Source of the DNA: Edaphochlamys debaryana | Taxonomy: Eukaryota > Chlorophyta > Chlorophyceae > Chlamydomonadales | Reading direction: 5' to 3' | Length of the DNA stretch: 64,000 nt | Assembly (NCBI GenBank): GCA_016858145.1 | Contig: JAEHOE010000190.1 | Span: 1 to 64,000, forward strand | Shown here: positions 5,791-55,951 of the stretch, one piece after another | Layout of the letters: the number at the start of each line of letters is the position of its first letter | How positions within the stretch are numbered: position 1 is the first letter of the stretch | The notes under the pieces: model-generated | Told to the model about the DNA's origin: nothing | Databases searched by the model: none | The model's input: only the letters and a program-made list of their open reading frames with translations | Position numbers and translations under genes: made by a program

Positions 5791-6545
5791 CTAGCCCTGC
5801 AGCGGCTTCCTGAAGCTGAGCGTCTTGGTGGCGGAGCTGACGTACTTGGTGTCGGGCTGCAGCCCCGCGGCCTGGAAGAGGGCGCCCAGGTCGCACGTGA
5901 TGTAGGACCTGACAGGGGGGTGGAGGGGGGGCAAGGGGGAGGGTAACGGGCAGATGAGGACCCGCAATCTAGTTCGTGTGGGCGCAAGGCGGCGCATGAG
6001 AGACTCCACGCCCCGGCCCTCCCCTCCCACCCCCGCTCCCTCGATCCGAAGTGCGAGCCCCCTTCTCTTTCCCCGCCCCCCTCACTCGTAGTGTGGCTCG
6101 TTGAAGGCCCCGAACATGCCGATGCTGCACGGAGGGACAGGGTGGTGGGTGGGGGGCAGAGGGGGAAAGGGGCCCGAGCGAGCGGTTGGGAGGAGGGAAA
6201 GAGATAGGCAGCCCCCCAGCACCGCAGGATGCACGGCCCCTGTACGCATCCCGCACCCACCCTCAACCGCTCCCAGACCCCAGGCCCCAGCCCAGCTTTC
6301 TTTCTCTCTCTCTTGCGGTCCCCCCTGCCTCCTCCCGCCTCCCCACAGCCGCCCCTTCCGCGTCCCTCCCGCCCCCCTCCCCCCCCCCCGCCCACCCACT
6401 TGCGGTCCCACGCCGGCCGGTCCCCCCGCTGCACGCTGTCGCTCAGCACCAGCAGCCCCCCGGGCCGCAGCACGCGGGCGAACTCGCGGGCGGCGGCAGC
6501 GCGGGCCTCCTGGGGCAGCTCATGCATGAGGTAGACGTTGAGGAC
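5791..6545 (-). pseudogene. Detached methyltransferase 3' exons, copy 3
   Basis: Third copy of the three-exon block. The first exon is open across VLRPGGLLVLSDS and WDRK, and splice sites appear usable, so this copy looks better preserved than the one joined to the full gene. It still lacks the upstream exons that carry the SAM-binding motif. Confidence 0.75.
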
Positions 6546-23172: not shown

Positions 23173-23254
23173 TGTGCAAGTCAGTGGCTGCACCTCGCTC
23201 TCATAGCCGGTCAGACGTACAGTAACACCCAACACAAGAAGAAAAGGGGCCAAT

Positions 23255-28624: not shown

Positions 28625-30794
28625 GAAGCGGGGGCAAGGGTCCCCTGAGGACTGGAACCCCGCGATCCGGTGCTCCGTGTGCGGTCAAGGGATGCCTGAT
28701 GACTCCTTGCTTCTCTGTGACTATTACGGGTGTACCCAGGCCTTCCACACTTTCTGCCTCAACCCGCCCCTGGCCCACGTGCCGCCGGGCATGTGGATGT
28801 GCCCAGGCCCACACGCACCGTTTGTACCGCCGGCCCCAGTGGCCCCCGCAGCCGCTGCGGCCCCTGCGCCGCCGCAGGCCCCGGTGGCAGCGCCTGGGCC
28901 GAGTGACCTGACGACGGAAGGCACCGGCGCAGAGGAGGACAGTGGCGGGTCGGCCCGTGAGAGCCTTGTGGTGTCGTGGAGGCCTGAGGACAAGGGGGAG
29001 GAAGAGGAGGGGGAAGGCATGGGTGAGGATGTGGCTGTGGAGCTGGAAATTGAGGAGGGAGAAGGGGCGGATGAGGGGGATGAGGCTGGACCCTCGAAAC
29101 CCCGGGCGGAGAGGTCGCCCTGGGAAGACACGGCCCTGATCCATTACCTGCAAACGGGGCGCTGGAGCTTCCCCGAAAACATAGGCCTGGAGAGGGCAAT
29201 CAAGGAGACCAAGAGGATTGAGCGTCGGGCAGAGAACTATATGTGGCTCGAGGGGACGCTGTACAAGGTGCGGCGCCAGCAGCGATGGCTTCCAGCCGGG
29301 GAGATCTCAAAGTGGAAGGTCCCCAAGCCGGCCGAGTGCGCGTCTATTGTGCGCACGGTGCACAGTCAGGGGCATCAGGGCTTTGACAAAACCTACAGCT
29401 CCGTGCAGGCCCGGTTCTGGTGGCCCGGCGTGCGCAAGGATGTGGAAGCCTGCCTACGTCAGTGCCCCGAGTGCGCTAGCAACCAGAACAAACTGCTGCG
29501 CCATCCTCGGCTTCGCCCCCTTCCGGTCGTACCGATATTGGATACAGTGCACTTGGACCTGTTCGGCCCGGTGACAAAGACGCCGCGCGGGCATCGTTAC
29601 TGCTTGGTCATGGTGGACAGCTTCAGCTCTTGGGTAGAAGTAGTGCCCCTGAAGACGAAGAAGGCGGCGGAGGTCTGGACGGCCTTCTGGCAGAACTGGG
29701 TCTGTCGGTATGGCGTGCCAAGGGTGGTGGTGTCAGACCGTGGTACAGAGTTCACGGGCAAGGCCTTCGCACGCGAGCTGCGCTCCCGCAGCATCAAGCA
29801 GTACGTCACGGCCGGTAGCAACCCGCGTGGCAACGGGAAGGCGGAACGCATGGTGGGGACCTTGCTGGATTCTCTCCGCAAGTTGATCACCGAGGAGACC
29901 GAGTGGGATGCCAAGTGCTACGACGCCGCTTATGCTTATCGTACGGCGGCCCACGCCGTCACCAAGATGAGCCCTGCTCTGTGCATGTTTGGGCGCGAGC
30001 TCACCTTGGCTGTGGAGCTGGCTCCCCCGGCAGACCCGGAGGCCTCGCCGGAGGAAGTTGAGCCCGAGCAGGTCCGTGTAGAGTGGACGTCCGAGCACTA
30101 CCAGCTCCTGAGGGCACGGCGAGAGCGCATGGAAGGGTTGGCGGTGGATGCGGAGAAGAGGCACGTTGAGGCGAAGGAGAGGGCGGAAAGGGAGTATCAG
30201 AAGAGGCGGCACCAATCCAAGCCCAGGCAACGAGGGCAGAAGCCCGGCAAGCCGGAAGACGGATCGGCGGCAGGGGCGGGTCCAGTTAACCCCCTTGGGG
30301 AGGAAGTAGTGGCGGCGGCCCGGCAGGCGACTGTGCAGCGGAAGCCGCGCGGTAAGGAGGCGGCCCAGCCCCCCTTGGCTAAGCCCCAGCAGCGGGAAGG
30401 TGCCAACCCGGGCGCCGTACCTACCCAAGCACGCGCGTCAGCCCCGGAGATTGGTCCGGCGGATCAGAGGCGCGAAGCGCCCGCCGCCGCCGGTGGTGCG
30501 CCAGCTGAAGGGGCAGGCCCGAACCCTGGACCTGTGGAAAGGGAGACCGGGGGACAATACAATGTCAGGCCAGCACAGGCGCACGAGCTTCGAGGGCTGC
30601 CCGACATCCCGCAAGACGCTTTGGTGTGGAAGCTGAAGCGACGGGATAGTAAGATGGCCAAGGACCGTGAGGGACCCTACCTGTTCCAGTTTTGGCGGGC
30701 ACCCGACGGCTCCCACGCCATCGTCAAGGACGCGCAAGGGACCATGTTTCCCGTCGCGTCGCACCTCCTGTTCGTGCCTCGGTCCAGCTTGTAG
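28338..30794 (+). CDS. Retrotransposon integrase with N-terminal PHD finger
   Basis: An open frame of 818 codons, shifted by one base from the Gag-Pol frame. Its true start is unknown: expression may need frameshifting in the 28338-28624 overlap, or a base in the G runs near 28535-28550 may be wrong. A PHD-type zinc finger lies near residue 112 ([26 protein letters not shown]). An acidic linker follows. Integrase has its zinc-binding module ([16 protein letters not shown]) and a DDE core with HLDLF, SDRGTEF and GKAERMV. The C-terminal tail ends after [14 protein letters not shown] fingers read histone tails, so this one may steer integration (inference). No chromodomain is seen. Confidence 0.88.
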
Positions 30795-38299: not shown

Positions 38300-38317
38300 C
38301 CCTATGGCACTACTTGA
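37331..38317 (+). pseudogene. Truncated pherophorin-like gene (first three exons only)
   Basis: Matches exons 1-3 of the gene at 17758. Exon 1 is 37331-37512, exon 2 is about 37831-37926, and exon 3 starts about 38158. Exon 3 is cut after ...AGCTTCCAG at 38299. The transposon end then reads in frame as PYGTT and a stop at 38315-38317. A transcript would give only the signal peptide and the N-terminal cysteine-rich part, without the proline rod. Upstream, ACTATATACATTC replaces ACTACATTC of copy A, which creates a TATA-like word ~135 bases before the ATG. Confidence 0.85.
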
Positions 38318-38510
38318 GTCCGTAATGGGGGGGTAGAGTCCCTTGTCCTCCGTAACCCCCCCCCCCCCTTTACGGCCACCCCACCGTAGCCCATCGTAGC
38401 CCCCCCCCCCTTTACGGCCACCCCACCGTAGCCCATCGTAGCCCCCCCCCCCTTTACGGCCACCCCACCGTTGCCCACTGTAGCCCTTCCCTCCGTAGCC
38501 CCTCTTCGCG
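38300..38510. repeat. Left inverted terminus and subterminal repeats
   Basis: After the terminal repeat come about three copies of a ~48-bp unit built of a long C run, TTTACGGCCACCCCACCGTAGCCCATC. In CACTA elements such repeats bind the element's own DNA-binding protein. That role is inferred here. Confidence 0.85.
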
Positions 38511-38977
38511 CCTTTCGCGCCTTTCGCGACGTCCTCGACAGACGCCTTCATGTGCTCGTACACTTCTGGAACTCGCCTGGGCGCCTTCTTATAGCTCAAG
38601 TTGCCGCTGCCAGGTTGTTATCACCACACATCACGTCTTCGACGCGTATCCCCAACGCTGCACCCTGCTCCTGCCCCTCGCGCGTCGCTCGCGTCCAAGT
38701 AATTCAAGTAAGCGCGGGCTTTGTTTGCTCTTGAGTGCTCTCCGTTGTTGCCTGGCTGCACTGGCTTGCAGCCATCGCTGCCTGCTCTGGCTCGCTGTAG
38801 AGGAGCACGCCCGTTCCACAGCCTCCCTAGCCCCTAGCCCGCGGTTGCTCCTGCTCACGGACCCCCCCGTTATCTCTGCCTCCCTGAGCTTTTAAGCCAG
38901 CATCGGAAGGCCTTATCCCCCACAGCCCCCAACCCCGCGGCCGCTTTCCCACTCTCCTTGCCTTCTCCCCCAGAGAA

Positions 38978-39862
38978 ATGGCACACGAGGTGGACTCCCA
39001 CGTTATTGCCGCAGGCACGGATACTCACTGGATGATCCGCCCCGGCACTCCCCTGGGAGGCAACCACGGCCTCAAGCTGCGACAGCCTGCCCGCTGCTCC
39101 ATTGGTTCTGTCCTCCGCCGGAGCGGCCCCATCACGCCCCTATTCAGGATTCAGGACGTTTACGCCGCCTCCCTGATTCCCAAGAACGCCCAGGGCGTTC
39201 ACCCGGTCAAGGTCAGTCGCCTATCTTTGTTCAGCGCTGGCCAGCCATACGTTGCGTCTGGCCCTCATGGGGTCTCCAAAAGGGCCAGCAAAGGCAGTAG
39301 AGACCTTCCGATCCTACAGATCTCCCCCCCCCCCTCCCTTACCATCCGCTCACAGGCCTGGATTCCCGCCGGCAACGTCACCATCGGCACCCTGTACGCA
39401 GGCGGCCACGTCGACCCGGACTGCTTCTTCTGCGAGATCAGCTACGAGGACCTGGTGTCCCGGCTGCACCTCGAGCTGCCCTTTGTCGAGCTGTCTGACC
39501 ACGACCTCGAGCGCTGCACCCCCATTCTCTGCCCCCACACCAGGGCCTGGGGCCTGCTAAGCGAGAACCGCAGTCACGCGTTCCTGCACCCCGAACCCCG
39601 CTCGGTCCCCTGGCCCACCACCAGCACCGTGGAGGGGCTCATCTGGGTAGAGCGCGTGTCCCTGACCTACGCTCCCATCTTCACCAACGCCCTCACCGAC
39701 CCCGTCGTCCTGGACCGCCTGCCCTCGCACCTGGGCATCTGGTACCCCGAGGGAGGGGTGGACGCCCCCCCCATGGAGGAGGGCGCTGCCGTGCAGGGCG
39801 CCGTGCTGCAGGTTGACCCCGCCGATGGCGAGGCCGAGGCTGAGGCCGAGGCCATGGCATAG
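38978..39862 (+). CDS. Unknown 246-aa protein of the CACTA element
   Basis: Two exons, 38978-39211 and 39356-39862, joined by a GT-AG intron of 144 bases with a strong pyrimidine tract. Each exon is in phase. The intron happens to be open and a multiple of three, so an unspliced 294-aa form is also possible. The protein has a globular, acidic look (DPDCFFCEISYEDLVSRL, LIWVERVSLTYAPIF) and ends in a Glu/Ala-rich tail. No membrane segment, signal peptide or known motif is seen. It is the first gene inside the left terminus and converges on the JmjC gene. Confidence 0.65.
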   Translation: MAHEVDSHVIAAGTDTHWMIRPGTPLGGNHGLKLRQPARCSIGSVLRRSGPITPLFRIQDVYAASLIPKNAQGVHPVKVSRLSLFSAGQPYVASGPHGVSKRASKGSRDLPILQISPPPSLTIRSQAWIPAGNVTIGTLYAGGHVDPDCFFCEISYEDLVSRLHLELPFVELSDHDLERCTPILCPHTRAWGLLSENRSHAFLHPEPRSVPWPTTSTVEGLIWVERVSLTYAPIFTNALTDPVVLDRLPSHLGIWYPEGGVDAPPMEEGAAVQGAVLQVDPADGEAEAEAEAMA

Positions 39863-40495
39863 TAGCCATATGCATAATAGCAGCTGAAGCTTGTCCTGAG
39901 CGCAAGAGGTACTTGCACTTGGAGGATGGGATGGATGGATGGGCCAAGAGGGCCCCGGGCGCCTTTTGGTTGTTGGCATTTGGCGCAGGAACTTTTCGGA
40001 GCCAAGGCATGTTTTGTGGTGGCATGGCATTATGGACGTCAATGAGTGGCTTGGGAAGCGTTGAGGGCCGGCAAGATCTGGTCTGGGGCGGGCTGGAGCG
40101 GCTTGGGCGGGGCGCAGGATTGCAGGATGTTGGCAAGACACGGACGTATGGATGCAGCACTAATGATGTTAAAGCCTGTGTCCTGTCGGTGCCCCTATAC
40201 ATGTGTCCACTCTCCTGCTCCTGCTCACCACAGCCCATCACAGCCCTTCATTGTTTATGTGCCCTGCCTTACACTCCAGGCATAGCGTGTTCAGCTTAAT
40301 GCACTACCACGGGCCCTTAAGCGTAACCATTCCTTGTCATGCCACGCACGTTAGTTCTTCCGCTGCTCCCATCATCCTCATTTCCCACACCAAAGCCACG
40401 CTAGACATCCGAATGTTAACAGGCGTCCAACCACCATATGTTGGCCGGAAGAAGCGTGCCTAATGCACCGAAAGCCCCTGAGGCCCCCCACGTAA
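39863..40495. other. Gap between converging genes
   Basis: About 630 bases holding the 3' ends of the 246-aa gene and the JmjC gene. Nothing else was recognised. Confidence 0.5.
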
Positions 40496-42654
40496 TCACA
40501 GGACCCTCGCCAACGCCACTACATTTTTGGTCACCAGTTTTTCGAGGTACGTATAGTCGAATCCATAGTATGAAATGAGGCCCTGAGTGGCCAGGAAACG
40601 AGGGAGCCAGAAGAGGGGCCCTGCCATCCTTAGGTCGGCCACCTCCCACGCCACCTTGACATTGCTGTTGACGTTGGTGACCTGGTGGGCCCACCCCGGG
40701 GGCACTTCCACCAGGTCAGCGTGCTTCTGGTCCACCACCCGCACATGCTCCTCCCCGAACTCCTCCACACATGCGTCAATGCCCTCCTGTGTGAGGTGAG
40801 GCTGCATCACCCAGGTCGGAGTAGGCGCCCAGGGTGTGCGGTTGCGGCGCTCCCACTTCACCTTCTTAGCCCCTCCCTTCTTCCCCTTCAGCCCCACCAC
40901 CCACTCGTTGAATTTTGAGATTATTGCAGGGCTGATGAACACCCAGCGTGCAAGCACCGCACCAGGAGGCACGTGCCATGCTGCAAACGCGACATTCTTT
41001 GCCCCCGCACGATCTATGTGGAAAGCCGAGAAGGTCACTCCTCCCCGCCCAACAATTATGAGCACGATCATCGACCAAGGCGACACGTCCCTCCCCGGGG
41101 CGCCCCCGCCAGACTCCACCCTCGTCCCACAGCGTCTTGATCACCCAGTACAGGATGGACTTCTCTCGCTTCTGCGGCGGGCAGTCGTAGTTGAAGCTGC
41201 GGTAGATCTTGCAATTCGAGTCCTCCGCCAGGCAGCTCCCCACTGCCGCGGCTCCTCCCTCCTCAACCAGCGCACTGCAAGAGGGACACGGGGGGGTGGG
41301 GGTGGGGTGGGGGGCGCGGGAGCAGACGGAGAAGGTCGTTGGAGGGAAGGGGGCGGGGAGGACACCCAGGTTGGTAGTACTACCGAGCACAAGAGCCGGG
41401 CAAAGCATGGGTGTGGTCAGCAAGGTTGGGCCAGAGGCTCCTGAACTTCCCAATCCAACCTTCCAACACACCTGAACTCTGGGTCCTTCTCCTCCTTCAC
41501 AAGCCTCGCCAACGCACAGTTGCCCCACAGCGTCATCTCCGCCTCCATCATCTCTGGCGTCCACCGTGGCGCTCCACGCTCAGGTAGCAGGCATTGTAGC
41601 TCCTCGACAGCGCCCAGCTCAGACAGGACAGGGTAGACGCTACAGGACAGGAACCGCAAGCACAGAAGCAGCTTGGCCTCTTCAGCCTAGCATGCCCTCA
41701 CTGTTCCCTCCCACCCCCAATCCTGCGCTCTACTCTTTCCCCTGACCACAGTGTCCCGCCCACCTTGGTGGCGTATTAGCCAAGTTGGTCGGCTTGAAGG
41801 GGATGTTACCGATGTGGTAGGCGTTGAGCACCTTCCTGTACTCAGGGGACGGGCAGTGTAGGCACGAGTCAGGCACGTACCCATTCCTTCCCCTTCGTCC
41901 CCTCTTCATTCCCCTCTCACCCCCCCCCCCCCCCCCCCCCCCCTCCCCGCGTTACGCACTCGAGCGCATCCAACTCTTCCTTCTCGGCGATGCAGAAGCG
42001 CTGCAGGCAGAAGCCCTCCTCCTCCGCTCTCTGGGCTGCCACAACGGGAGCGCACGCCCAGCACCACCACTCCGAGCCCTCCTCCTGATACCCAATCGCC
42101 TCCTTGCTGGGCTGTGCGAACACTACAAGCGCACACTTGGCCGCGCACAAAGCGCACGTCCACTCGCCACCCTCGCTCTGATTGTTCTCTCGCCTGATGA
42201 TGCTCTCCCTACGCAGCTCGTCTACTGAGTGCCTGCCCTTGCCCTGTCCCAGCATAGTCCCCACAGCAGCGACCAGTGCGTATGACTCCTCCCGGTGGCG
42301 CGCCTCGTCCTCCCGGCCTGGCGGCAGCTTGATGTGCCGGACGATTTTCGCTGCGTGAGACCCGTAGCGGGCCTCCCACTGCTCGATGCAGCAATCGCTG
42401 GCAAGGACAGGGTCCAGGTCGGCGTTGGGAGCGTCGTCGTCAAGAAACGACGCCAGCATCCGCTTGCTGGTGGGCTTCCGGCACAGCTTCTCCGCTACAT
42501 GTTGGCCTATGTGGTCTTTGCAGAACAGCTTAACACTCGACCTGATGTTGTTGGGGTCCTGTAGGCAGAGGTCCGGGCAAGCGCACATTGTGTACGCGGC
42601 CCGCCGCCCGCACTTCTGTGCGCCGCACTGCACGAAGCAGTAGTCCTTTGACAT
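40496..42654 (-). CDS. JmjC-domain protein with N-terminal cysteine clusters, carried by the transposon
   Basis: Four exons: 42654-41960, 41835-41764, 41639-41472 and 41274-40496. The N-terminal part has zinc-finger-like clusters (CFVQCGAQKCGRRAAYTMCAC and later CALCAAKC, WWCWAC). The C-terminal part matches a JmjC 2-oxoglutarate/Fe(II) oxygenase: FHIDRAGAKNV supplies the H-x-D metal pair and PPGWAHQVTN the distal histidine. NVKVAW follows, as in KDM3-type demethylases (HQV-N-VKVA pattern). Enzymes of this family remove methyl groups from histone lysine, but activity and substrate here are inferred. Phases of exons 1-3 agree. Exon 4 is one base too long, with the break in the G/C runs near 41090-41115. 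This gene and the HNH gene diverge from a shared 425-bp region. Confidence 0.72.
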
Positions 42655-43079
42655 GTTGCTATGATATTGGGTAGCCTATGTGCAGTAGGGTGCTTTAGAG
42701 AGGCGACCAGTCCCTGTGCCGTACCGGCGACCCCATTACGGAGGGTGCAAGGCTTCCTTGCACCCTCCGTAATGGGGGGTGCAGCGCAGCCTTGCACCCC
42801 CCGTAGACCTCCCGCGCCCCGTTACCCCCCCGTTACGGAGGGTGCAAGGCACCCTTGTGCCCCCGTAGCCTCCCCGCACCCCGTTACCCCCCCCCCCCAC
42901 CTTTCCTCCTGCCTTGTCCGCCCTGGGGCGCCGTACACAAAGTCCATGCAAGCCCGCGAAATTTAAGTTGCCGCACTTCAGCGTGAGTCCCACAAGCAAC
43001 TGCTCGTGCATGTGTTGAAGCAGCGCCAGACACACACGCCCCCCATCGCCCCCAATACGCCAAGCCCTCCGTGCCCGCT
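42655..43079. promoter_or_regulatory. Bidirectional promoter region with copies of the terminal motif
   Basis: Lies between the divergent JmjC and HNH genes. At 42728-42776 there is a near-perfect hairpin with arms CCCCATTACGGAGGGTGCAAGG and its complement. Further TTACGGAGGGTGCAAGG and CCGTTACCCCCC words continue to about 42897. The word TCCGTAATGGGG is shared with the element's termini, which suggests a common binding protein (inference). Confidence 0.6.
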
Positions 43080-44139
43080 ATGTCGTCGACTCCTCGCTCT
43101 TCAGCTTTCGGCGACCTGGTAACGGAGCTGCAGACCGTCCCCACAGATGAGACTAAGTGAGTGCAGGGTGTGCAGTGAATTCAGGGTGTATTTTGAGCTG
43201 GGAAGGCCGCTAGCCTCCACGGCACGCTATTACCGAACTCGCCTCCCTCGCCACCACCTCGCACCTCACCCCCGCCCCCCTTCCCCCCACAGCTGTCCCC
43301 CTCGTACCTTCAAGGGCATCAACTACCTTTGCGAGGATTCCCGCTTCAGGTCTGAGAAGAATTTCCAGGAGGCCAAGACGGCTATCCGCGCCTATCTGAG
43401 CGGCATCCCTGGAGTCCTCCTGCCTCCGTGCATCCCCTCCTGGATTGTACGTGACGCCATCAACACCACCCCCTCTTACTTCGAGAATAAGAAGGGCTCG
43501 GGGCGCTACGTCATGGACATGCAGAAGTGCAAGGACCTGAAGCGCATCATGAGGGCCAATTTCATCCGCCAGAAGATGCGCCTCGAGTTCAAGCCGTTCC
43601 CGTGGGCGCCCGTGCCTGTTCCCAGCTCCATGGAGCCCATGCCCACTGCGAACCTCACCCTGCTGATGGCTCCACCGCCCGCACCCATCCCCGCACACCC
43701 TCTGCTGGGTCCAGCCGCCTCGTCCACCACTGAGGGCCCCTCGCCCGCTCTGGCCCCCGCCCCTCCGCCCTCCGCTCCGCCCTCCGCTCCGCCCTCCGCG
43801 TCCACGCGCCTCCGTGTTCCCCCCGTGCTCCGTCCCTCCTACCGTGACATTGCATACCGTGTCTCGCCCACGGGTGAGGTGTGGGGCCCGAGGGGACACG
43901 CCCTTCTTCACCGTGGCCACCACAGCCGCGTCATGGTGAGGATCCGCGGTGAGGCGGCCCGCCTTGACATGATTGTGGCGCACGCCTGGCTGGGCAACGG
44001 CTCTCTCCTGCACCGCCCCGGTTACAACGTCTTCCACATCGACGGCAACCGCTTCAACAACAACGCCAGCAACCTCATCGTGGCCACCAAGCAGCAGGCC
44101 AGGTGGCTAAAGGCGAAGCGGTACCGCTTCCTGGTGTAA
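43080..44139 (+). CDS. HNH endonuclease carried by the transposon
   Basis: Two exons, 43080-43156 and 43293-44139, with matching phase, giving 307 aa and no frame break. The N-terminal half contains a basic helical region (NFQEAKTAIRAYL, KDLKRIMRANFIRQK), then an Ala/Pro-rich linker. The C-terminal ~90 residues match the HNH_3 type: SPTGEVWGPRGHALL, then RLDMIVAHAWLG, then VFHIDGNRFNNNASNLIVAT. The usual HH pair at the start of the signature is FH here. Homing-type HNH enzymes of this form occur in phages, algal viruses and mobile introns. It may cut or nick DNA during movement of the element, or be a passenger. Confidence 0.75.
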
Positions 44140-44145
44140 AGAGCA

Positions 44146-44462
44146 GTAACCGTATGCATAGCACCATATGGTCCGCTGGCGCAAGGGTGTCAGCATGCAG
44201 GGTGGTGGACAGGATGGCAGTAACTGTGTGTGTTTGGTCTGGCTGCGGGCTGGTGATGCCAAGCAGCAACGAGGTCTAGTTAGAGGGATGCAAGTGCGCT
44301 GGCTGCGGTATGGCAGAGATTTGAGCGACGGCCCTTGACGGTTGGGTGCACCGTTTCCTTATGTGGGGCACTGGAACTGTATGCATAGAACCAGATGGTC
44401 TGCTGGCACAAGGGTGTCAGCATGCAGGGTGGCGGACAGGACGGCTGCGGGCTGGTGATGCC
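44146..44462. repeat. Short diverged tandem duplication
   Basis: About 110 bases at 44146-44260 (GTATGCATAG...GTGTCAGCATGCAGGGTGG) recur at 44371-44462. No ORF. Confidence 0.75.
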
Positions 44463-44565
44463 CTTTTGCTTGAGAAGTGGATTGAGCGGCTTGACAGAGA
44501 TTCGAGCAGAACAGTAACGGGCTCAACATTAGTGCTGCCCCCTTCGATCGTTCCCATCTGCCCCC

Positions 44566-46719
44566 GCGCAAAGGGGCTGACCATCTAGGACAGTCGGCAG
44601 GACAGGGCTTTGCCAGCGGGCTGGGAAGGGGTACCAGTCATCCAAGCGGCGGGGCTCTCGCGCAAAGGGGCTGACCATCTAGGACAGTCGGCAGGACAGG
44701 GCTTTGCCAGCGGGCTGGGAAGGGGTACCAGTCATCCGAGCGGCGGGGCTCTCGCGCAAAGGGGCTGACCATCTAGGACAGTCGGCAGGACAGGGCTTTG
44801 CCAGCGGGCTGGGAAGGGGTACCAGTCATCCAAGCGGCGGGGCTCTCGCGCAAAGGGGCTGACCATCTAGGACAGTCGGCAGGACAGGGCTTTGCCAGCG
44901 GGCTGGGAAGGGGTACCAGTCATCCGAGCGGCGGGGCTCTCGCGCAAAGGGGCTGACCATCTAGGACAGTCGGCAGGACAGGGCTTTGCCAGCGGGCTGG
45001 GAAGGGGTACCAGTCATCCAAGTGGCGGGGCTCTCGCGCAAAGGGGCTGACCATCTAGGACAGTCAGCAGGACAGGGCTTTGCCAGCGGGCTGGGAAGGG
45101 GTACCAGTCATCCGAGCGGCGGGGCTCTCGCGCAAAGGGGCTGACCATCTAGGACAGTCGGCAGGACAGGGCTTTGCCAGCGGGCTGGGAAGGGGTACCA
45201 GTCATCCAAGCGGCGGGGCTCTCGCGCAAAGGGGCTGACCATCTAGGACAGTCGGCAGGACAGGGCTTTGCCAGCGGGCTGGGAAGGGGTACCAGTCATC
45301 CGAGCGGCGGGGCTCTCGCGCAAAGGGGCTGACCATCTAGGACAGTCGGCAGGACAGGGCTTTGCCAGCGGGCTGGGAAGGGGTACCAGTCATCCAAGCG
45401 GCGGGGCTCTCGCGCAAAGGGGCTGACCATCTAGGACAGTCGGCAGGACAGGGCTTTGCCAGCGGGCTGGGAAGGGGTACCAGTCATCCAAGCGGCGGGG
45501 CTCTCGCGCAAAGGGGCTGACCATCTAGGACAGTCGGCAGGACAGGGCTTTGCCAGCGGGCTGGGAAGGGGTACCAGTCATCCGAGCGGCGGGGCTCTCG
45601 CGCAAAGGGGCTGACCATCTAGGACAGTCGGCAGGACAGGGCTTTGCCAGCGGGCTGGGAAGGGGTACCAGTCATCCAAGCGGCGGGGCTCTCGCGCAAA
45701 GGGGCTGACCATCTAGGACAGTCGGCAGGACAGGGCTTTGCCAGCGGGCTGGGAAGGGGTACCAGTCATCCGAGCGGCGGGGCTCTCGCGCAAAGGGGCT
45801 GACCATCTAGGACAGTCGGCAGGACAGGGCTTTGCCAGCGGGCTGGGAAGGGGTACCAGTCATCCAAGTGGCGGGGCTCTCGCGCAAAGGGGCTGACCAT
45901 CTAGGACAGTCGGCAGGACAGGGCTTTGCCAGCGGGCTGGGAAGGGGTACCAGTCATCCGAGCGGCGGGGCTCTCGCGCAAAGGGGCTGACCATCTAGGA
46001 CAGTCGGCAGGACAGGGCTTTGCCAGCGGGCTGGGAAGGGGTACCAGTCATCCAAGCGGCGGGGCTCTCGCGCAAAGGGGCTGACCATCTAGGACAGTCG
46101 GCAGGACAGGGCTTTGCCAGCGGGCTGGGAAGGGGTACCAGTCATCCAAGCGGCGGGGCTCTCGCGCAAAGGGGCTGACCATCTAGGACAGTCGGCAGGA
46201 CAGGGCTTTGCCAGCGGGCTGGGAAGGGGTACCAGTCATCCGAGCGGCGGGGCTCTCGCGCAAAGGGGCTGACCATCTAGGACAGTCGGCAGGACAGGGC
46301 TTTGCCAGCGGGCTGGGAAGGGGTACCAGTCATCCGAGCGGCGGGGCTCTCGCGCAAAGGGGCTGACCATCTAGGACAGTCGGCAGGACAGGGCTTTGCC
46401 AGCGGGCTGGGAAGGGGTACCAGTCATCCAAGCGGCGGGGCTCTCGCGCAAAGGGGCTGACCATCTAGGACAGTCGGCAGGACAGGGCTTTGCCAGCGGG
46501 CTGGGAAGGGGTACCAGTCATCCAAGCGGCGGGGCCCTCGCGCAAAGGGGCTGACCATCTAGGACAGTCGGCAGGACAGGGCTTTGCCAGCGGGCTGGGA
46601 AGGGGTACCAGTCATCCGAGCGGCGGGGCTCTCGCGCAAAGGGGCTGACCATCTAGGACAGTCGGCAGGACAGGGCTTTGCCAGCGGGCTGGGAAGGGGT
46701 ACCAGTCATCCGAGCGGCG
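44566..46719. repeat. 94-bp satellite, about 23 copies
   Basis: The unit starts GCGCAAAGGGGCTGACCATC and contains GGTACC. The spacing is exactly 94 bases at the junctions measured (44566, 44660, 44754). Copies are almost identical, differing mostly at one site (CCAAGCGG or CCGAGCGG), with rare CCAAGTGG. It lies between the 3' ends of the HNH and transposase genes. Apparent ORFs entering it from the right are fortuitous. Confidence 0.97.
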
Positions 46720-46964
46720 TTCATCTCGTTTGCACTCTTGCAAGGCCGTAAAGACCATCCAGTCAACGTCCCCGCCAATCTGACTGCATCTGCCACCACC
46801 GCCGCCACCGCACCGCAGGACCGCCACCCGCACCGGCACGCTACACCTCCAACCACCAGGGCCACCACCGCAGCCACCGCAGCCGCCAACGTCCCAACCA
46901 CCGCACCGGCACGCTACATCTACTACCACCAAGGCCACCACCGCAGCCACCGCAGCCACCGCCA

Positions 46965-49900
46965 CTACCATCGTCGCCACCGCAGGTGGAGGCTCTTGAA
47001 GTTGCGGAGAACGTGCCAGTGCCTTGCGAGCACGACTTGTCGCCGCTTTGCAGCGGCTCGCTTCTCGTTGTGTGGGTGCGGCTGTGCAAAGCACACCCAG
47101 GGCACAATTGCTCTCGGCAAGAACCATGGCCCGTCTGCGTGTGATTTCGCCTCCATGGGGATCACTGGGCAGTGGAGCAGGGGGTCAGGCTTTGACTCGG
47201 CTTTGTACCATTTGGCCATCACCAGTGCCTCTGCATACCCGTCACGTCCCACGTGCTTGATTACGTTTTCCACCTTGCCGAACCAAAGCTCACCCGACGT
47301 GTCAGGGCGGCAGAGAAACCAGGACCCAGCGGACAGCTTCACACGCCCCACCCTCACTCCCTTCAGGACTTTGACCGTCGCATCCCCACCCACCGAACTG
47401 TCCATGTCCCACCGTTCATATGCCGCATCGAGCTGCGACATTTGCTTCTTCGACAGGGTCATCTCCGGCAGCGCCCGTCGCTCCTCATCGTCCCCGATGG
47501 GGACAACAGTCGGTGTACGGCAGAAGTAGGCTCTCTCGTCGTACATGTCGACCAGGTCGTCGCAGTTAGCGTCCTCCTCTTCAGAGGCGGCCACACGCTC
47601 GACATCGCGCAGCCCCCCCTCGTCCTCGACCTCGCCCTCGCTCCCACCCTCATTGCCCTCGCCCTCGCTCCCACCCTCATCACTGTTGCCCTCGCTCCCG
47701 CCCTCAGCGTAGCCCTCGCTCTCACCCCTGGCCTCAGCCTCACCCTCCCTGTCACCATCGACCTCGGCCTCGGGATCGGCCTCACTGCCCATGCCCTCCC
47801 CTCCGCCACCTTCCGCGTCGGCCTGCGTGGCCTCGTACTCCAGCCGCAGTGCAAGGCAGACCTGCCTGTCGAGGGCCGAGTAGAACATGGAGGCCTCCAT
47901 GTAGCGCTTGCTGTGTGCCCACCGGCCCAGCACTCCCCATAAGTGCTCAGCCTTGAACATGGCAGTGCAGTAAAGGGGCCCTGTATAAGGAGATATGGGC
48001 GTAGGAAAAGGGATGGGGAAGAGCACAACGATGGCCCCCGAGCCCCCTAGGCCTCCACCCAAACCCCAAGGCCCCCGAGCAACTGACCCAAAACCCAAGG
48101 CCCCGCCACCCCCCCCCCCCCAGGCCCACCGAAGTTGGCTATGCCGTCCACCAGGTGGATGCAGTTGTGCAGCTTGATGTCAAGCTGCACTGCACCCAGG
48201 TAGGTCTCCACGAGGCACAATGCGGTTGCGACCCGTGCCTTAAGGGCTGGAAGCCTGTCTCGGCACGGAATCTTGTCCCACAGGTCACACGACACCTGGA
48301 GAAGGGCGATGAGCGTTTCCTCCACTTCAGGACTGAGCCCCGCGCTCGCGACGGCATATGACCCGTATGGCCCCGCCAGCAGGAAGAATGTATGCGACTT
48401 GGCCTTCTTTCCAGCGGAGGTCAGGCGGGCAAGACGCTTTGCCCCTGGATCGATCTTGGCAATCTCCAGCAGTGCGTCCCGGAACTTGGCAATCACGTCA
48501 GGTGGGAAAGCTGTGGGATGGGGGAAGACGGTGCTCAGACCCAGCCCCCAGCCCCCAGCCCCCCAGCCCCCAGCCCCCAGCCCAGCCCCCAGCCCCCAGC
48601 CCCCAGCCCCCAGCCCCCAGCCCCCAGCCCCCAGCCCCCAGCCCCCAGCCCCCAGCCCCCAGCCCCCAGCCCCCAGCCCCCAGCCCCCAGCCCCCAGCCC
48701 CCAGCCCCCAGCCCCCAGCCCCCAGGCCCCCAGCCCCCAGCCCCCCAGCCCCCAGCCCCAGCCCCCAGGCCCCCAGCCCCCAGCCCCCATCCCCCATCCC
48801 CCAGCCCCCAGCCCCCAGCCCCCAGCCCCCAGCCCCCAGCCCCCAGCCCCCAGCCCCAGCCCCCAGCCCCCATCCCAGCCCCCAGCCCCCCCCATCCCCC
48901 AGCCCCCAGCCCCCAGCCCCCAGCCCCCAGCCCCAGCCCCCAGCCCCCAGCCCCCCAGCCCCCAGCCCCCAGCCCCCAGCCCCCAGCCCCCATCCCCCAG
49001 CCCCCATCCCCCAGCCCCCAGCCCCCAGCCCCAGCCCCCAGCCCCGCAGCCCCCATCCCCCAGCCCCCAGCCCCCAGCCCCAGCCCCCAGCCCCCAGCCC
49101 CCCAGCCCCCAGCCCCCCAGCCCCCAGCCCCCAGCCCCCAGCCCCCAGCCCCATCCCCCAGCCCCCACCCCCAGCCCAGCCCCCAGCCCCCAGCCCCCAG
49201 CCCCCAGCCTCCCAGCCCCCAGCCCCAGCCCCGCCCCCAGCCCCAGCCCCCAGCCCCAGCCCCCCAGCCCCCATCCCCCAGCCCCCCTAGCCCCCAGCCC
49301 CAGCCCCCATCCCCCAGCCCCCACCCCAGCCCCAGCCCCCAGCCCCCAGCCCCCAGCCCCAGCCCCACCCAGCCCCCAGCCCCCAGCCCCCAGCCCCCAG
49401 CCCCCAGCCCCCAGCCCCAGCCCCCAGCCCCTTCTTACGTGTGATGGTCAGGTTGTTTGCATTGTCGTATGCAGTAATGGCGGGGCTCCGCTCACGCAGG
49501 TTCTGGAGAGTCAGTACGATGGTATCCTTAATCACGCCGGCGAGGGTGTGCATGGCGTCGTAGTTCCACGACAGTACCGGGTCAAAGGATGGTGAGTTGT
49601 AAACAGGCGAGGACACCTGGGGCTGATCACGCGAACGGGGGGTTGCTACACGGCTCCAGGTAGCGTTGAGGGGAGGGAGGTTGGGCTCACTTGCTGCTGG
49701 TGGGCCGTTCATGCCCCGGCGGATCTCCTCTGCCCCCCGTTGCCGGGGCCGTTTGAAGGGGTTAGTGTTCCCGGCCAGCCTCCATGATTGAGCCACAACT
49801 GGCGCTGCTGCGTCCGCCGCTCCATCACCACCCGCATCCTCATCTTCTTCAACCCAATTGTCCTCGTTGTCACTGCCGTCTGCTGGCCGCTCTTGTTGAC

Positions 49901-52365
49901 GCTCTTGTTGACGGCCCCAGCCCTGGCCCTCGGGATCACGGCTGGTGAAGTTGGCCTTGAGAGCGCCAAAGAGAGGGTGGCTGGTAGGAAGGAAGCGAAA
50001 GTGGTCGGTATAGACCGTCTTGCCGCCACACTTGAAGCCTGGCTGCCAGCACTTGAGGCATGCCCACAGGGCAGGAGAGAACTTGACGCCCACGTGCTTC
50101 TGTAGCCCACGGTAGTCTGATACCATGCCCAGGAGGGTGGCATAGCACCTGGGGAGGGGGGAGGGATTGAATGCGTGGCGTTAGTAGCAGTAGTAGCAGT
50201 AACAGCGGAGGTAGCAGTAGTAGTAGCAGTCACTGGTGCCTGGATCCTCACCTGAACGTCTCGTTGCCACGTGAGGCGTCCTGCAGCAGGACACCCTCCT
50301 CCTCCAGGAACCGAAGCTCGTCTAAGATGAGGGCGAGGACGTGGTTAGGGTCCATTGGAGGCGCACACTTGTCTCCCGGGTACTTGATGTTGCCGCCAAT
50401 GATGGCGAGCACGGATGAGTAACCGAGCTCAAATCGACTCTCCTGAGGGGCATTGACGGCCACCAGGTACCATGGAGTGCTTGACCGTTGCGATTCGTCG
50501 GAGGGGACCTTTATAAGGCGGGGCAAGGGCAAGGACACCCAGTCATATAAGGAATGCAAGGCACACAAGCATCCCAGGTGCCCGAAGTGCCCCAAGCAAC
50601 CCACAAGCCCCTGAGCCCCACCAGCTCCACCAGCCCCACGCACCAGCCCCTCCTGCCCCACACCCCCCGCCGGATTCAGCACTTACAATGAACGGGTCCG
50701 TGATGAGGACGAAGATGACGTTGCGCCTTTCAGTCTTAAACTTAGGCTGCTTGGCGAAGAGGTCGGCGATGGCTGCCCCATCGCCGATGTCAAACATGCA
50801 GTCCGAGTGGGGCTGTGTCCGGTGTTGCGCCTCCAGGCGTTCCTTCCATGCCCCAAACTGAGAGGCGGTCACCTTGTTGCTGTAGATGCTTTGGAGCCAC
50901 TGCCTGATGGAGTTGTAGAGCATATAGCGTGATGGGTCCATGGGCTTGTTGCAGCGCTTGGACTTGGTGCCTGGCGAGAGGGCCGGACAGGCCTTCGCCT
51001 TGGCGTGCTCTCCGCGATACACGAAGCCACACTCGCACATGGGGTATCGCCAGATGACCGGCCACTTCACTCCAGCAATGTCCTCCAGCATGGTGAGTAC
51101 CTGCAGTGGACCGCAACGTGTAGGACCGCAAGGGAACCGCAACCCTCCACCCGCCAAACCCACCCGCCAACCACCTGACAAACCCACTGAGCCCCTTGCT
51201 CCCCAGCCTACGCCAACACACCTGCTTGAACGTGGTGGGCAGGTACTTGGCAGCATGCTTCTGCACCTCACTCGCAAAGGGACCCGCAAAGGATTCCCGG
51301 ATGCTCTTGAGAAAGCGCGCCACTGAGGTCTCGGTCGCGCCAGGGCTGCACTCCTTCTGCAGGATGGCCTGGTATAGGACACGGGTGACTAGGCGTGTAA
51401 CATCCGCATCTCCAGTTGGGAGCTCGAGGTACTGAAGGCGCTGCGCACGGCGGCGAGGCTTTCCGCCATCACAGCCATTGCCAGGGCACCGGGCGAACAA
51501 GCCAGATGAAGCTGCGCAAAATGGGTGGGATAGGGAAGGACGGATACCGGGATCAGCGGCATGCACATTCCTCGCCCCCCTGAAAAGAGGCTTCTCTGTC
51601 CCCCGCCCCCCGCTCTTGCTCCCTGGCCCAATTGAAAAGCCTAGACCCCCCGTCCCAACCGGTGAAGTTCTCGACGCCGCCAATGCCGCCCCCGCCATGG
51701 CTTGGGATGACGGGGTCAACGTCGCCAACACCCCCACTGCGTGCTGCAGCTGCAGCTGCTAGTGCGTCAGCAGCAGGCGGTTGAGTGACCGGAGGGATCG
51801 CTGCTCCAACCTCCCCCGGCTCAGGCTCTGCTTCGTCTATGCCCCACTCCGCTAGCTCCGTTTCGTCAAGTGCAGGCCCGGCGGGGGGAATGGGGTGGGG
51901 TCCCGGGGGGGCTGCACCAGCAGGAGGGGGGGCGGCTGGCGTGACGTCTTGCGAGTGCGGGCCTGGGTGTAGGCCGCCACCCTGATCTTGGTCGTGTTGG
52001 GAAGGGCCACCAGGATCTGTGCCCCCTGCGGAGTCATTGGAGAGACGCCGAAGGAGAGATGGGCTGAGGCTGGGAATGGGAGAGGGCCTGAGTAGCAGTG
52101 GAGTTGCTGCCTGATGCTGTACGCCGCGGCCACTGGTGCTTGGCGAAGACAATGCTCCGTCGCCTGGGGCTATGGCCTCGTGCCGGTCCAGAAAGTAGGC
52201 CTCAGCAGGTTCCAGTAGAGGAATGTCCTGTACCGCTCGGTGCCGAGGAACAGGCGAGCCCAGGGGCCCAATACCATCGGCATTTCCATTGCCAGCCACG
52301 CTCTCGACAGCGCCGATGCCACAACCACTGTCATCGTGGGCTTTGCGCTTACGTTGTCGTCCCAT
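46965..52365 (-). CDS. CACTA-type (tnp2-like) DDE transposase, apparently intact
   Basis: Seven exons: 52365-51660, 51511-51222, 51100-50687, 50508-50252, 50148-49439, 48510-48130 and 47980-46965. All phases agree and the total is 3774 bases, 1257 aa plus stop. The N-terminus is basic ([12 protein letters not shown]) and disordered. An in-frame upstream ATG at 52473 would add 36 residues. Zinc-binding-like pairs occur ([23 protein letters not shown]). Typical tnp2 features are VLITDPF near residue 466, [41 protein letters not shown] near 750, [11 protein letters not shown] and [13 protein letters not shown] near 930. These offer candidate D, D and E residues. The long acidic segment near 960-1060 is low complexity. 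It should cut and join the element's ends. Intron 5 holds a G-rich heptamer array. Confidence 0.85.
48538..49432 (-). repeat. Heptamer minisatellite (AGCCCCC / GGGGGCT) in a transposase intron
   Basis: About 900 bases of near-perfect 7-bp repeats, interrupted by occasional CCATCCC and CCAGGCCC variants. On the transposase coding strand this is a continuous series of GGGGGCT, so the intron RNA is G-rich. It lies wholly in the intron 48511-49438. All long Pro- or Gly-rich ORFs here are artefacts. Confidence 0.95.
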
Positions 52366-52709
52366 GAAAGACGCAGACGCGATTAGCAGGGCAGTGAGAG
52401 TAAGTGCAAGGAGGATGTGGCGTGCAGGTTGGTGGGCAGGGTAAGGAGAGTGTCGCGCGTACGCGCGCGACATGGCGCTAGTGAAGCACTGGGGAAAGTA
52501 TCTACATTACAAACGGCTTGGGGTCTGTGCGTACCTTGGCTGGGCGGCGCATGCCACGGAGATGCCCCCCATTGCCATGGTCGATTGATCCTGTCTCCTG
52601 CGCCACAAACCACCGCAGTCCGCTATCCACTATCCACTGTCTTCCTGTCCACTATCTCCCTGTCCGTTACCGCGCGAATGCCATACATCTAACATAAGCG
52701 TTGGCAGAC
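52366..52709. promoter_or_regulatory. Divergent promoter region of transposase and partner gene
   Basis: 344 bases between two divergent start codons. The two genes are likely co-regulated. It contains CGCGCGTACGCGCG, a palindrome near 52456-52469. No TATA box is clear. Confidence 0.45.
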
Positions 52710-55486
52710 ATGGCCGGTATAGGAGAAGTCGAGGCTCAGCCTTCAACTACAGATGACGTGGCAGAGGCGGAGGAGTGTGTGGAGAGGGAGGAGCAGCATC
52801 ACAGCGGAATAGAGGGAGAAGGTCCGCAGCTGCCAGGTGAGCTCTGTGATTCGAGCGGCGGGGCTCTGGTGCAGGCTTGTGATGCCGACCCGCTGATGTA
52901 TATGTAGTTCTCTGGGACGTTAATAACTTCTAGGGATAGGACTGGGCAGCGGGGAGCCCTGGAAGGCCCGCCCAGACGCTTGACCGGGAAGCAAGCACTT
53001 GCCATGACACCGCTGACCGTCTGGCTGTCCCGCCGGTGTTGCAGGTGATGTTGAAGGGGAGGAGGAGGATCCATACGCTGAGTACAGCGAGGAGCTTCGC
53101 GAGGAGTTGCGCGGCATCGGGTATCGCGGGCTTCCGGAGGCGCTGCGCAGCAAGCTCCAGCAGACTAAGGGCGCCGTGCAGCGCTTGGTGCTGACTGTGG
53201 AGACCAGTCCCATATGGGACAGCTGCGACGACCTCTGGAAGTCGTCGATTTCCCTCGCTGCCAATGTGCCTGGCTTGCAGAGCATGATGGTGCAGGCAAT
53301 GGGAGGTGACGTGCTCGGGCACTACATTGCGTCAGCAATCGTCGCGGTGTTGGGGGAGACAAGCCTGACGCCGGAGTCGGGCGGCAAGACCAAGAGCTCG
53401 AGGTGTGTCGGGGATGGGCGTAAGTGTCTGGGGACGGGCGCCTGGGGATGGGCATCTGTGGATGGGCGCAAGGGGACAGGGCATCTGGGGACGGGCGTCT
53501 GGGGACGGGTGCAAGGGGACTGTGCATCTGGGGCGGGCGTCAGGGCCTGGTCTCGGCATGAATGTGTCAGGGGCTGGTCTCTGCATAAATGCGTACGCGT
53601 GAGCCAGGAGTCGTAATTACAACACCCCCGTGTGCCCATTCCCTCGACCAAAGCAGGCCGAGCGCCAAGGCCAAGAGCAGCGAGAAGGGCGAGGTAAAGC
53701 TCAGCGAGGCGCAGGAAACCCTGCGCAAGGAGTTGGGCAAGCCATTCGAGGAGGTCTTCAACAAGCTGGGGCTCCAGATAAACCACGCGAGCCTGGTGCG
53801 GGTGTACGGCGTGGCGCTCGTCATGACCCGAATGTGAGCCTGCCGGCTGGGCTTGGCTGGGCTTGGCTGGGCTGGCTGGGCTGGCGAATTCCCGAAACCG
53901 GCGAAGTCAACCAGCACACCCCGCTTGCCCATGCAATCCACAACTCGTGTTTCTCAAGCCAGTGGCTTATACCCTCCCGTCCATGCAGGTTCGTCCGCTG
54001 CGGGCTGCAGTGGGCGGATGTATACAAGGGGCGCAGCGCTGATATTGGCCAGGTAGTCGTCAACGGCATGGACATGCACGTTCTGTATGTCAGCTACGTC
54101 CGGTCGATCCTCAAGGCGTGGATCAACTACACGGGCGATAAGAGCGCCACAAACCACGTGGCCAACCTGACCTTAAGCCAGGTCAGGGCGCTGGGCGACC
54201 TCCTCAACGACAAGATCAGCAACGTGATGCAGAACATCCAAGGGAGCAGACGTAGGTGGGGGTGGTGGTGGTGGGGGATAGATGCAGGGCTGTTTTAAGT
54301 TGGGGGGGGACGTGAAGCTTCCAGGTTTTGGCTTCTTAAGCTGATGGAGAGCCCTGCCTTGTCCTAATGTTGTTGTGCCGGTGTGCTGCCCTCTATTCCT
54401 CGCAGTGTTCCCCCTCATCAAGAAGATCCTGGAGAAGAGGGCGAAGAAGGCGGCGAGGGCCGCTGAGGACGCCTCTGCTGCTTCCGCTGTCGACGCGGCT
54501 GCAGCCGGCCCCAGCAGGCCGCTGCCCAAGCGGCGGAAGACGAACGCGGGGAGCGGGGGGGGCGGCTGAGCAGCCCGCAGCTGCGGCGGCGGCTTGTGCC
54601 GTGACTGACAGCGAGGTGGAGGCAGCGGTGGCGGTGGCCACGACCTTCAAGCCACCCGCGCAGTTCACGCACGCCTTCGACGAACGGGTGTACCCCTGGG
54701 GATACAGTTGGAAGCTACCCGGCGGTCGCGGCCCGCCATGCAGCGTGGAGGCGGCGCGGGCTTACTTCTTCATGAACGAGGCCGCTGCAATCTTCAAGGA
54801 GTTCGACATTGCCGGTGGCAACAAGTGCACCAGCATGGGTGGGTTGGTTACAACACGTGCTACCAAATTGACTTGCTGTTTGCTTGCTTGCCCAGCTTGT
54901 TGCATGATGTGCCCAGCTTACTAACTTCTAACTTGCCCCTGCCTACAGCGAGCATCAACGAGTTCATGCTCATCGTGTACAGCCCCAGCGTGAAGTTCTG
55001 CGTGGAGCAGCTGGTGGGCATGTAAGCCAGGGCCCTCGGGGATAGGCTTGGTTAGTGCTGCTGCCGGGGAGGGGCCTTGGTGGTGAGGGAACTTGATTGG
55101 AGAGGTCTTGGAGGCAGGGGAGGGTATTGAAGGGCGGCTTGGCTTGACATGGCATGGCTTCGCCCCACTAAGACGACTCCTTCTCCCGAAACCACAACAG
55201 CATCGAGGTCGCGCCGAGGGAGGAGGGAGGAGCCGGTGGAGACGGAGGAGCCGGTGGAGCCGGTGGAGACGGAGGAGCCGGTGGAGACAGAGGAGGCGGT
55301 GGAGCGGGTGCGGCAGGTGTGGCCGCGGAAGCCACGGGGGCGCCACAGGGCACGGCACAGCCCGAGCAGCCGGGAACCGCGGAACCGCGGAACGTGCAGA
55401 AGCCTCCTGCCCAGGCGGCCGTCGTGGCGGAGGCAGGGCAGACAGCACGAAGGCCAACCCGCCCTACAGGCCGCCAAAAGCCATAG
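52710..55486 (+). CDS. Second CACTA-element protein, multi-exon, unknown function
   Basis: Seven exons: 52710-52836, 53045-53402, 53657-53833, 53989-54251, 54406-54838, 54949-55021 and 55201-55486. Phases agree everywhere except in exon 5, which is one base too long at a run of eight G near 54556. With that base as read, translation stops at 54570. The protein is about 570 aa. Features seen: an acidic N-terminus, helical segments (SEELREELRGIGYRGL, VFNKLGLQINHASLVRVYGV), a lysine-rich region (IKKILEKRAKKAARAAED), a basic nuclear-signal-like PKRRKT, and a Gly/Ala-rich tail. Its place beside the transposase suits the role of the DNA-binding helper (TnpA-like) of CACTA elements, but no sequence similarity was recognised. 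Confidence 0.65.
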
Positions 55487-55579
55487 GCCCTGGCGGCCGG
55501 GGCAATGGCCGCGGCGACAGACCCGGCAGGGGTGACCGCTAGCAGGAGCAGGCAGCGGGGTTGGTGGAGGTGGCATTGG

Positions 55580-55951
55580 GGGCTGATGGGGGGGTACGTG
55601 ACGGACGGGGGTCCATGACGGATGCTATGAAGCCTACGGGGGGTAGGTGACGGACGCGGGTCCATTACGGATGGTCTGAAGCCTATGGGGGGGGGGGGGG
55701 GGTAACGGACGCGGGTCCCTTACGGATGGTGTGCAGCTACGGGGGGGTAGGTAATGGACTGGTCCTTTACGGACGGTATGAAGCCTACGGGGGGGTTGGT
55801 AATGGACTCGGATCCGTTACGGATGGTACACCCCCTACGGTTCCGTTATGGACTCAACTCCGTAGCCACATCAGAGACCGTTACGGGGGGGGGTCCGTAA
55901 TGTGTGTGTGTGATCTACCCCCCCATTACGGACTCAAGTAGTGCCATAGGG
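55580..55951. repeat. Right subterminal repeats and inverted terminus
   Basis: About six degenerate ~50-bp repeats of CCTACGGGGGG...GGACGCGGGTCC...TTACGGATGG, then CCCCCCATTACGGACTCAAGTAGTGCCATAGGG. It mirrors the left end in motif but not in exact unit, as is common in CACTA elements. Confidence 0.85.

What the first reader, a model, noticed from the sequence alone, without database searches (positions are those of the whole stretch)
38300..55951. A ~17.6 kb CACTA transposon with five genes in a symmetric layout
The element has exact inverted ends containing CACTA, subterminal repeats, and an apparently complete 1257-aa tnp2-like transposase. It also carries a JmjC protein, an HNH nuclease and two unknown proteins. 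The genes form two divergent pairs (JmjC/HNH and transposase/partner) and converge on a satellite. CACTA elements usually encode a transposase and a DNA-binding helper. A chromatin-enzyme-plus-nuclease cargo is, as far as I know, not a described arrangement.
Basis: partly seen in the sequence, partly recalled or inferred. Interest (0 to 1): 0.92.

Follow-up and report, generated by a model that had tools for sequence, protein, structure and literature searches.

The report
Algal transposon carrying chromatin-enzyme cargo
In a green-alga genome, a family of large cut-and-paste transposons carries, besides its transposase, a conserved gene of the histone-demethylase type and a nuclease-like gene, which may help the transposon escape being silenced by its host.

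Summary
The element is real. It runs exactly 38300-55951 with perfect 38-bp inverted ends. The end pattern has 57 matches in the genome. Of 13 elements whose two ends were read, 10 have perfect 3-bp target-site duplications. Of 11 elements read in full, 8 hold all five gene regions; 3 have internal deletions. So the refutation test (cargo found only here) fails.

At four places a second family (34-70% protein identity by stretch) keeps left end, P1, JmjC, HNH and transposase in the same order and orientation. JmjC is the most constrained gene (pN/pS 0.09-0.11; transposase 0.47-0.58).

Corrections: the ends are CCCTATGG..CCATAGGG; CACTA lies inside and is GACTA in a subfamily. By transposase the element is a relative of Volvox Jordan, in the EnSpm/CACTA superfamily. 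The window's JmjC has a private 1-bp insertion, its flanks do not match, and an HNH active-site His is missing in the second family.

Best reading: a Jordan-like transposon with its own JmjC-type eraser, probably for anti-silencing (inferred). New variant of a known kind.

The parts
38300..38337 (+). left terminal inverted repeat, 38 bp perfect
   Evidence: CCCTATGG precedes CACTA in all 30 end loci read, of 57 matches
38358..38486 (.). left subterminal 42-bp array x 3.1
38978..39862 (+). P1, unknown protein, two exons (38978-39202, 39353-39862)
   Evidence: 44-60% identical stretches in the second family; pN/pS 0.34 and 0.38; no Pfam family
40496..42654 (-). JmjC gene, three exons (42654-41960, 41639-41472, 41274-40496); the window copy has a private 1-bp insertion near 41119
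   Evidence: the joined frame is open in C7, C25, C62 and C173
42655..43079 (.). divergent JmjC/HNH intergenic region: 62-bp repeats, a GGGTGCAAGG..CCTTGCACCC palindrome, three copies of the end hexamer CCGTAA/TTACGG (42736, 42767, 42833)
43080..44139 (+). HNH_3-domain gene (start uncertain: 43080 or 43147)
44565..46719 (.). 94-bp satellite x 22.9; seed count varies 3-25 among 8 elements
46965..52507 (-). tnp2-type transposase; supported exons about 51491-51222, 51103-50675, 50512-50251, 50150-49439, 48510-48130, 47981-46965; N-terminal exon uncertain
48540..49431 (.). 7-bp minisatellite, apparently inside a transposase intron
53020..55025 (+). P5, unknown partner protein (matched stretches 53050-53388, 54011-54250, 54637-54846, 54939-55022)
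55588..55840 (.). right subterminal arrays (about 49 bp)
55914..55951 (-). right terminal inverted repeat, 38 bp

Best explanation
This is a large DNA transposon of the Jordan-like (EnSpm/CMC) lineage that encodes a JmjC-type 2-oxoglutarate oxygenase as part of its own long-kept gene set. Shown: the ends, the 3-bp duplications, the recurring five-gene layout, conservation of four of the five genes in a second family, and purifying selection on JmjC. Inferred: the JmjC protein removes a repressive chromatin mark from element copies (self-desilencing); JmjC and HNH are co-expressed from a shared divergent promoter that carries the element's own end motif, so that an element-encoded DNA-binding protein could control them. 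HNH is most likely a DNA-binding or degenerate nuclease domain. P5 may be the accessory protein that CACTA elements usually have.
For: Recurrence: 8 of 11 fully read elements hold all five gene regions, and 6 of these 8 (C7, C25, C65, C368, C62, C173) have their own perfect 3-bp duplication. By exon matches, 10 of the 18 two-ended elements have all five genes. Second family: at C11, C69, C173 and C393 the left end, P1, JmjC, HNH and transposase lie in the window's order and orientation. Selection: JmjC pN/pS 0.11 and 0.09 (p 4e-6 and 4e-7) between the CACTA and GACTA subfamilies; dS 1.40 against dN 0.35 between families for JmjC exon 3. The H-x-D..H pattern is kept in the three JmjC sequences aligned. 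Leaving out the window's own insertion, 6 of 7 (C62) and 6 of 8 (C173) indels in the exon stretches are multiples of 3. Promoter: 3 end hexamers in 439 bp, reached by 0 of 1000 shuffles. Precedents: TET/JBP dioxygenases in fungal DNA transposons (PMC12730594, passages) and VANC anti-silencing proteins (PMC10398659, abstract).
Against: No expression, structure or activity data. JmjC matches Pfam only over its last third; in the window family the protein scans fall under the cut-off (23.6, 22.2), and the same stretch weakly matches other families such as GPI, also under their cut-offs. No solved structure matches. Two protein searches found no JmjC homologue, each scoring 8000 candidates. Only 4 of the 8 second-family left ends have JmjC; beside C9, C48, C128 and C324 only P1 was found, with a weak 31% HNH match at C48. 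P5 was not detected in the second family, and a distant transposase relative on C2 has no JmjC or HNH match. The end hexamer was chosen after reading the ends, two of its three promoter sites are arms of one palindrome, and it is absent from the second family's intergenic region.
Confidence: 0.5

Rival explanations
1. The JmjC protein acts in transposition itself (opening chromatin at donor or target sites, or hydroxylating the transposase or another protein) rather than against silencing.
For: JmjC is more constrained than the transposase and is kept with it in two families.
Against: Nothing here separates the two. Element C69, which lacks JmjC and HNH, has intact ends and a 3-bp duplication, but it may have lost them after insertion.
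Confidence: 0.25
2. The cargo is passive: captured host genes carried along, as in Pack-CACTA elements.
For: CACTA elements do capture genes (PMC13317346, passages). HNH and JmjC are lost in some copies.
Against: Same gene order in a second family; purifying selection on JmjC. The best JmjC match that I could not assign to a copy of either family is C59 (43-46% over 61-122 residues), whose nature was not examined.
Confidence: 0.1
3. HNH is a homing-type nuclease that spreads its own part of the element by gene conversion, in the way proposed for KolobokP's nuclease-driven spread.
For: The domain matches phage HNH families and HNH_3. From 43456 to 44202 there are 0 substitutions between the window and either GACTA copy, after 122 and 121 in the preceding part of the alignment.
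Against: In the second family HIDGN is NINGD, so the presumed general-base His is lost. Conversion can be passive.
Confidence: 0.15

Closest known systems
Jordan (and Idaten) of Volvox carteri, EnSpm/CACTA superfamily
   Same: Transposase 37% identical over 83% of the query to the 'jordan transposition protein'. Jordan is described as resembling En/Spm and CACTA, with inverted ends (PMC5093975, passages). CCCTA..TAGGG ends and a 3-bp duplication for Idaten are recalled, not from a call.
   Different: I recall no JmjC or HNH gene in Jordan or Idaten. The Idaten paper is not held; the Jordan paper was not looked up.
TET+ DNA transposons of fungi (PMC12730594)
   Same: DNA transposons, EnSpm among them, that encode a dioxygenase thought to help escape methylation-based silencing (passages).
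   Different: TET/JBP acts on DNA bases; the cargo here is JmjC. The word JmjC occurs 0 times in that paper's main text. Host is a green alga.
VANDAL elements with VANC anti-silencing proteins
   Same: Transposon-encoded anti-silencing acting on tandem repeats in noncoding regions (PMC10398659, abstract).
   Different: Mutator-like transposase and no JmjC domain in VANC (both recalled).
KolobokP (PMC9587614)
   Same: DDD/E transposon with an HNH/His-Me nuclease gene on the opposite strand (abstract and one section).
   Different: Kolobok transposase, long terminal direct repeats, His-Cys-box type nuclease; only two proteins named.

Membership tests
CACTA/EnSpm (CMC) superfamily | tnp2-type DDE transposase | tested here: met
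   Transposase_21 36.8 bits, cut-off 28.6; catalytic residues not checked
CACTA/EnSpm (CMC) superfamily | 3-bp target-site duplication | tested here: met
   10 of 13 elements; not the window copy, C171 or C444
CACTA/EnSpm (CMC) superfamily | first and last 5 bp are CACTA/TAGTG (as stated in PMC4158355, passages) | tested here: not met
   ends are CCCTATGG; CACTA at positions 9-13, GACTA in a subfamily
CACTA/EnSpm (CMC) superfamily | subterminal repeats of a protein-bound motif | tested here: inconclusive
   12 of 16 CCGTAA/TTACGG hexamers lie in the end regions; binding not testable
Jordan-like volvocine transposons | transposase homologous to the Jordan transposition protein | tested here: met
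   E 2.4e-92, 37% identity, 83% coverage
JmjC oxygenases | Pfam JmjC over cut-off (24 bits) | tested here: inconclusive
   second family 25.7 and 25.1, over; window family 23.6 and 22.2, under, in protein scans and 24.5, over, in the genome scan
JmjC oxygenases | H-x-D..H iron ligands | tested here: met
   pattern invariant in the three sequences of A1; assigned by motif, not by structure
JmjC histone demethylases | demethylase activity on histones | not testable with these tools
   needs biochemistry
HNH nucleases (HNH_3, I-HmuI type) | Pfam HNH_3 over cut-off (24.8 bits) | tested here: met
   27.9 in the window; the second family's C11 copy 14.9, under
HNH nucleases (HNH_3, I-HmuI type) | active-site His kept | tested here: not met
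   HIDGN in the window family, NINGD in the second-family copy; the role of this His is recalled from I-HmuI
TET+ DNA transposons | encodes a TET/JBP dioxygenase | tested here: not met
   no such Pfam match in 10 window ORFs or 6 proteins; not every ORF of the element was scanned
KolobokP | Kolobok transposase and long terminal direct repeats | tested here: not met
   tnp2-type transposase; terminal repeats are inverted

The most novel reading that the evidence does not exclude
A DNA transposon lineage that carries its own histone demethylase as a core gene under stronger selection than its transposase, expressed together with an HNH DNA-binding partner from a promoter marked by the element's own end motif: a self-contained, sequence-guided anti-silencing module based on JmjC chemistry.
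Probability: 0.4. Interest if true: 0.9.

Novelty: new variant of a known kind. Interest (0 to 1): 0.74.

Why it matters
Transposons that fight silencing with their own proteins are known: TET/JBP in fungi (proposed) and VANC in Arabidopsis. A JmjC-type eraser kept as a core transposon gene would extend this to histone marks and make it testable in volvocine algae. Also, 19 of 36 JmjC exon matches in this genome lie in copies of this transposon (lower-bound counts), which matters when chromatin enzymes are annotated.

Tried and rejected
Chance neighbours or nested insertion: rejected by recurrence on different flanks and in a second family.

Viral origin of the cargo: JmjC and HNH alignments against viral contigs gave no confirmed relative (134 and 77 pattern stretches). 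NCBIfam gave nothing over a cut-off. A profile match of the HNH alignment's N-terminal and proline-rich part to capsid VP1 (E 0.001) was judged chance. I-HmuI (1u3e) came up only at E 0.87.

The first end pattern was a guess made before the ends were read and is not used. A plasmid protein search found nothing.

Structure prediction never ran, as the queue was full, so no fold comparison was made.

Automatic gene models failed for P1 and P5, and were wrong or incomplete for the JmjC 3' end and the transposase. They were corrected by comparison with relatives.
Full report
Where it lies. The source genome has 141.9 Mb in 502 contigs. Size, contig number and telomere type fit Edaphochlamys debaryana (142.14 Mb, 527 contigs, TTTAGGG; PMC8226300, passages). 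That identification is an inference.

The ends. The window element has perfect 38-bp inverted repeats that begin CCCTATGG. In all 30 end loci read (of 57 matches) CCCTATGG precedes CACTA, and in a subfamily the pentamer is GACTA, so CACTA is neither terminal nor invariant. The end pattern with up to 3 mismatches has 57 matches, 40 exact, against 2 and 0 in the reversed controls. Of 13 elements whose two ends were read, 10 have a perfect 3-bp duplication; the window copy, C171 and C444 do not. The window's right flank recurs on C368, whose element has its own matching duplication, and C368's other flank recurs at an end on C202; 13 bp of the window's left flank recur at the end of C444, whose other flank is that of C25. 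So the window copy is either an assembly mis-join between insertions or a recombinant.

Gene content. I read 11 elements in full, the window included. Eight hold all five gene regions: C7, C25, C65, C368, C444, C62, C173 and the window. Three have internal deletions: C230 lacks most of HNH, C171 lacks most of JmjC and nearly all of HNH, and C69 lacks both. By exon matches, 10 of the 18 two-ended elements have all five genes; two of the ten, C14 and C289, are rearranged and were not read, and C41 has no HNH match. Short elements (C18, C27, C338, C15) show only P1 or P5 parts. The satellite varies from 3 to 25 seed copies in 8 elements. 'Five gene regions' does not mean intact genes: besides the window's JmjC insertion, 1-bp indels lie in exon stretches of C7 (transposase), C368 (P1, JmjC, transposase), C173 (transposase) and, in large number, C444, which looks unpolished.

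Second family. C11, C69, C173 and C393 encode JmjC at 49-70%, HNH at 47-55% and transposase at 54-68% identity per matched stretch; the N-terminal part of JmjC is only 34-35% identical. At all four, left end, P1, JmjC, HNH and transposase lie in the window's order and orientation; two of the loci were read (L055, L056). Homology between C11 and C69 starts at CCCTATGGGACTAAAAAAGTC. That pattern has 12 matches with up to 3 mismatches (controls 0 and 2), 7 of them exact and all 7 beside P1; the end at C69 has 2 mismatches. Of these 8 left ends, 4 have JmjC, HNH and transposase. Beside C9, C48, C128 and C324 only P1 was found, plus a weak HNH match at C48. Right ends of this family were not found with that pattern, and P5 was not detected there. 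At C89 and C62:67669, P1 and a 64-residue start of JmjC survive, at 58-65% and 51%: perhaps a third lineage. A distant transposase relative on C2 has no JmjC or HNH match.

Selection. Between the CACTA and GACTA subfamilies JmjC has pN/pS 0.11 (C7/C62) and 0.09 (C25/C173), with one-sided p of 4e-6 and 4e-7. Transposase has 0.58 and 0.47 (p 0.02 and 0.0008; the first is disturbed by a frameshift in C7), P1 0.34 and 0.38 (p 0.03 and 0.04), P5 0.87 and 0.66 (not significant, three stretches), HNH 0.22 and 0.67 (5 and 3 changes, not significant). Between families dN is below dS in all five stretches tested; dS exceeds 1 in four of them. Leaving out the window's own insertion, 6 of 7 (C62) and 6 of 8 (C173) indels in the exon stretches are multiples of 3; one of the exceptions, near 48105, probably lies in an intron. 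The 1-bp insertion near 41119 in the window's JmjC is lacking in all seven other aligned copies.

What the proteins are. Transposase: Transposase_21 at 36.8 bits. Its two hits among 8000 scored candidates are a Pleodorina starrii protein and the Volvox 'jordan transposition protein'. JmjC: the Pfam score is over the cut-off in the second family and, in the window family, under it in protein scans and just over it in the genome scan. H-x-D..H is conserved, and the Cys-rich N-terminal part has no Pfam family over its cut-off. Two searches of 5.8 billion proteins, 8000 candidates scored each, found no homologue. HNH: HNH_3 over the cut-off in the window family, phage HNH families at E 4.5e-10, but the C11 copy has NINGD where the window family has HIDGN. 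P1 and P5: unknown.

Regulation. The hexamer CCGTAA/TTACGG, chosen after reading the ends, occurs 16 times in the window element: 12 in the end regions, 3 in the 439-bp JmjC/HNH intergenic region (0 of 1000 dinucleotide shuffles reach 3) and 1 in the remaining 16.2 kb (shuffle mean 2.4). C62 has 2 in the intergenic region. Two of the three sites are arms of one palindrome. A GGGTGCAA..TTGCACCC-type palindrome is also seen in the C11 intergenic region, but the hexamer is not. I infer shared control of JmjC and HNH by an element-encoded DNA-binding protein.

Mechanism and rivals. The favoured reading is an element-encoded chromatin eraser used against silencing. The main rival is a role in transposition itself. 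Passive capture is disfavoured. Homing by HNH is possible in the window family: from 43456 to 44202 both GACTA copies have 0 substitutions, after 122 and 121 before. Ordinary gene conversion would also explain it.

Literature. Nine searches bear on this; a tenth asked for the end letters and found nothing. Judging by listed titles and abstract starts, several lists being capped, none describes a DNA transposon with a JmjC gene. Most subscription papers and Repbase lie outside the library, and the Idaten paper is not held. PMC12730594 (passages) gives the nearest precedent, TET/JBP in fungal DNA transposons including EnSpm; JmjC occurs 0 times in it. PMC9587614 (outline, abstract, section 9) gives an HNH precedent. 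PMC4158355 (passages) gives the usual CACTA layout of two reading frames.

Noticed in passing
window 1-8785: Four tandem copies of a unit of about 2.2 kb, 97.9-98.6% identical; the one long ORF scanned there has no Pfam match at E 0.001.
   Followed up: partly
window 23207-30791: Retrotransposon reading frames (gag, reverse transcriptase with RNase H, integrase) whose second frame also has a PHD finger, another chromatin-related domain in a mobile element.
   Followed up: no
window 19250-19831: 51-bp array x 11.4 within long open frames; the unit is C-rich and would read as proline-rich.
   Followed up: no
window 43456-44202 against L051-L054: Zero substitutions between the window and the two GACTA copies over most of the HNH gene, against about 2% before it: recent conversion or recombination.
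   Followed up: partly
G000 C25:893922-896112: A related left end (2 mismatches) followed by a 44% identical HNH gene with no JmjC or P1 match nearby: perhaps a lineage with HNH only.
   Followed up: no
G000 C4:1702824-1703360: Weak match (29%, E 9e-5) to the Cys-rich N-terminal part of the second-family JmjC, outside the copies listed: possible host relative.
   Followed up: no
G000 C59:23703-24089: JmjC match of 43-46% over 61-122 residues that belongs to no element end found here.
   Followed up: no
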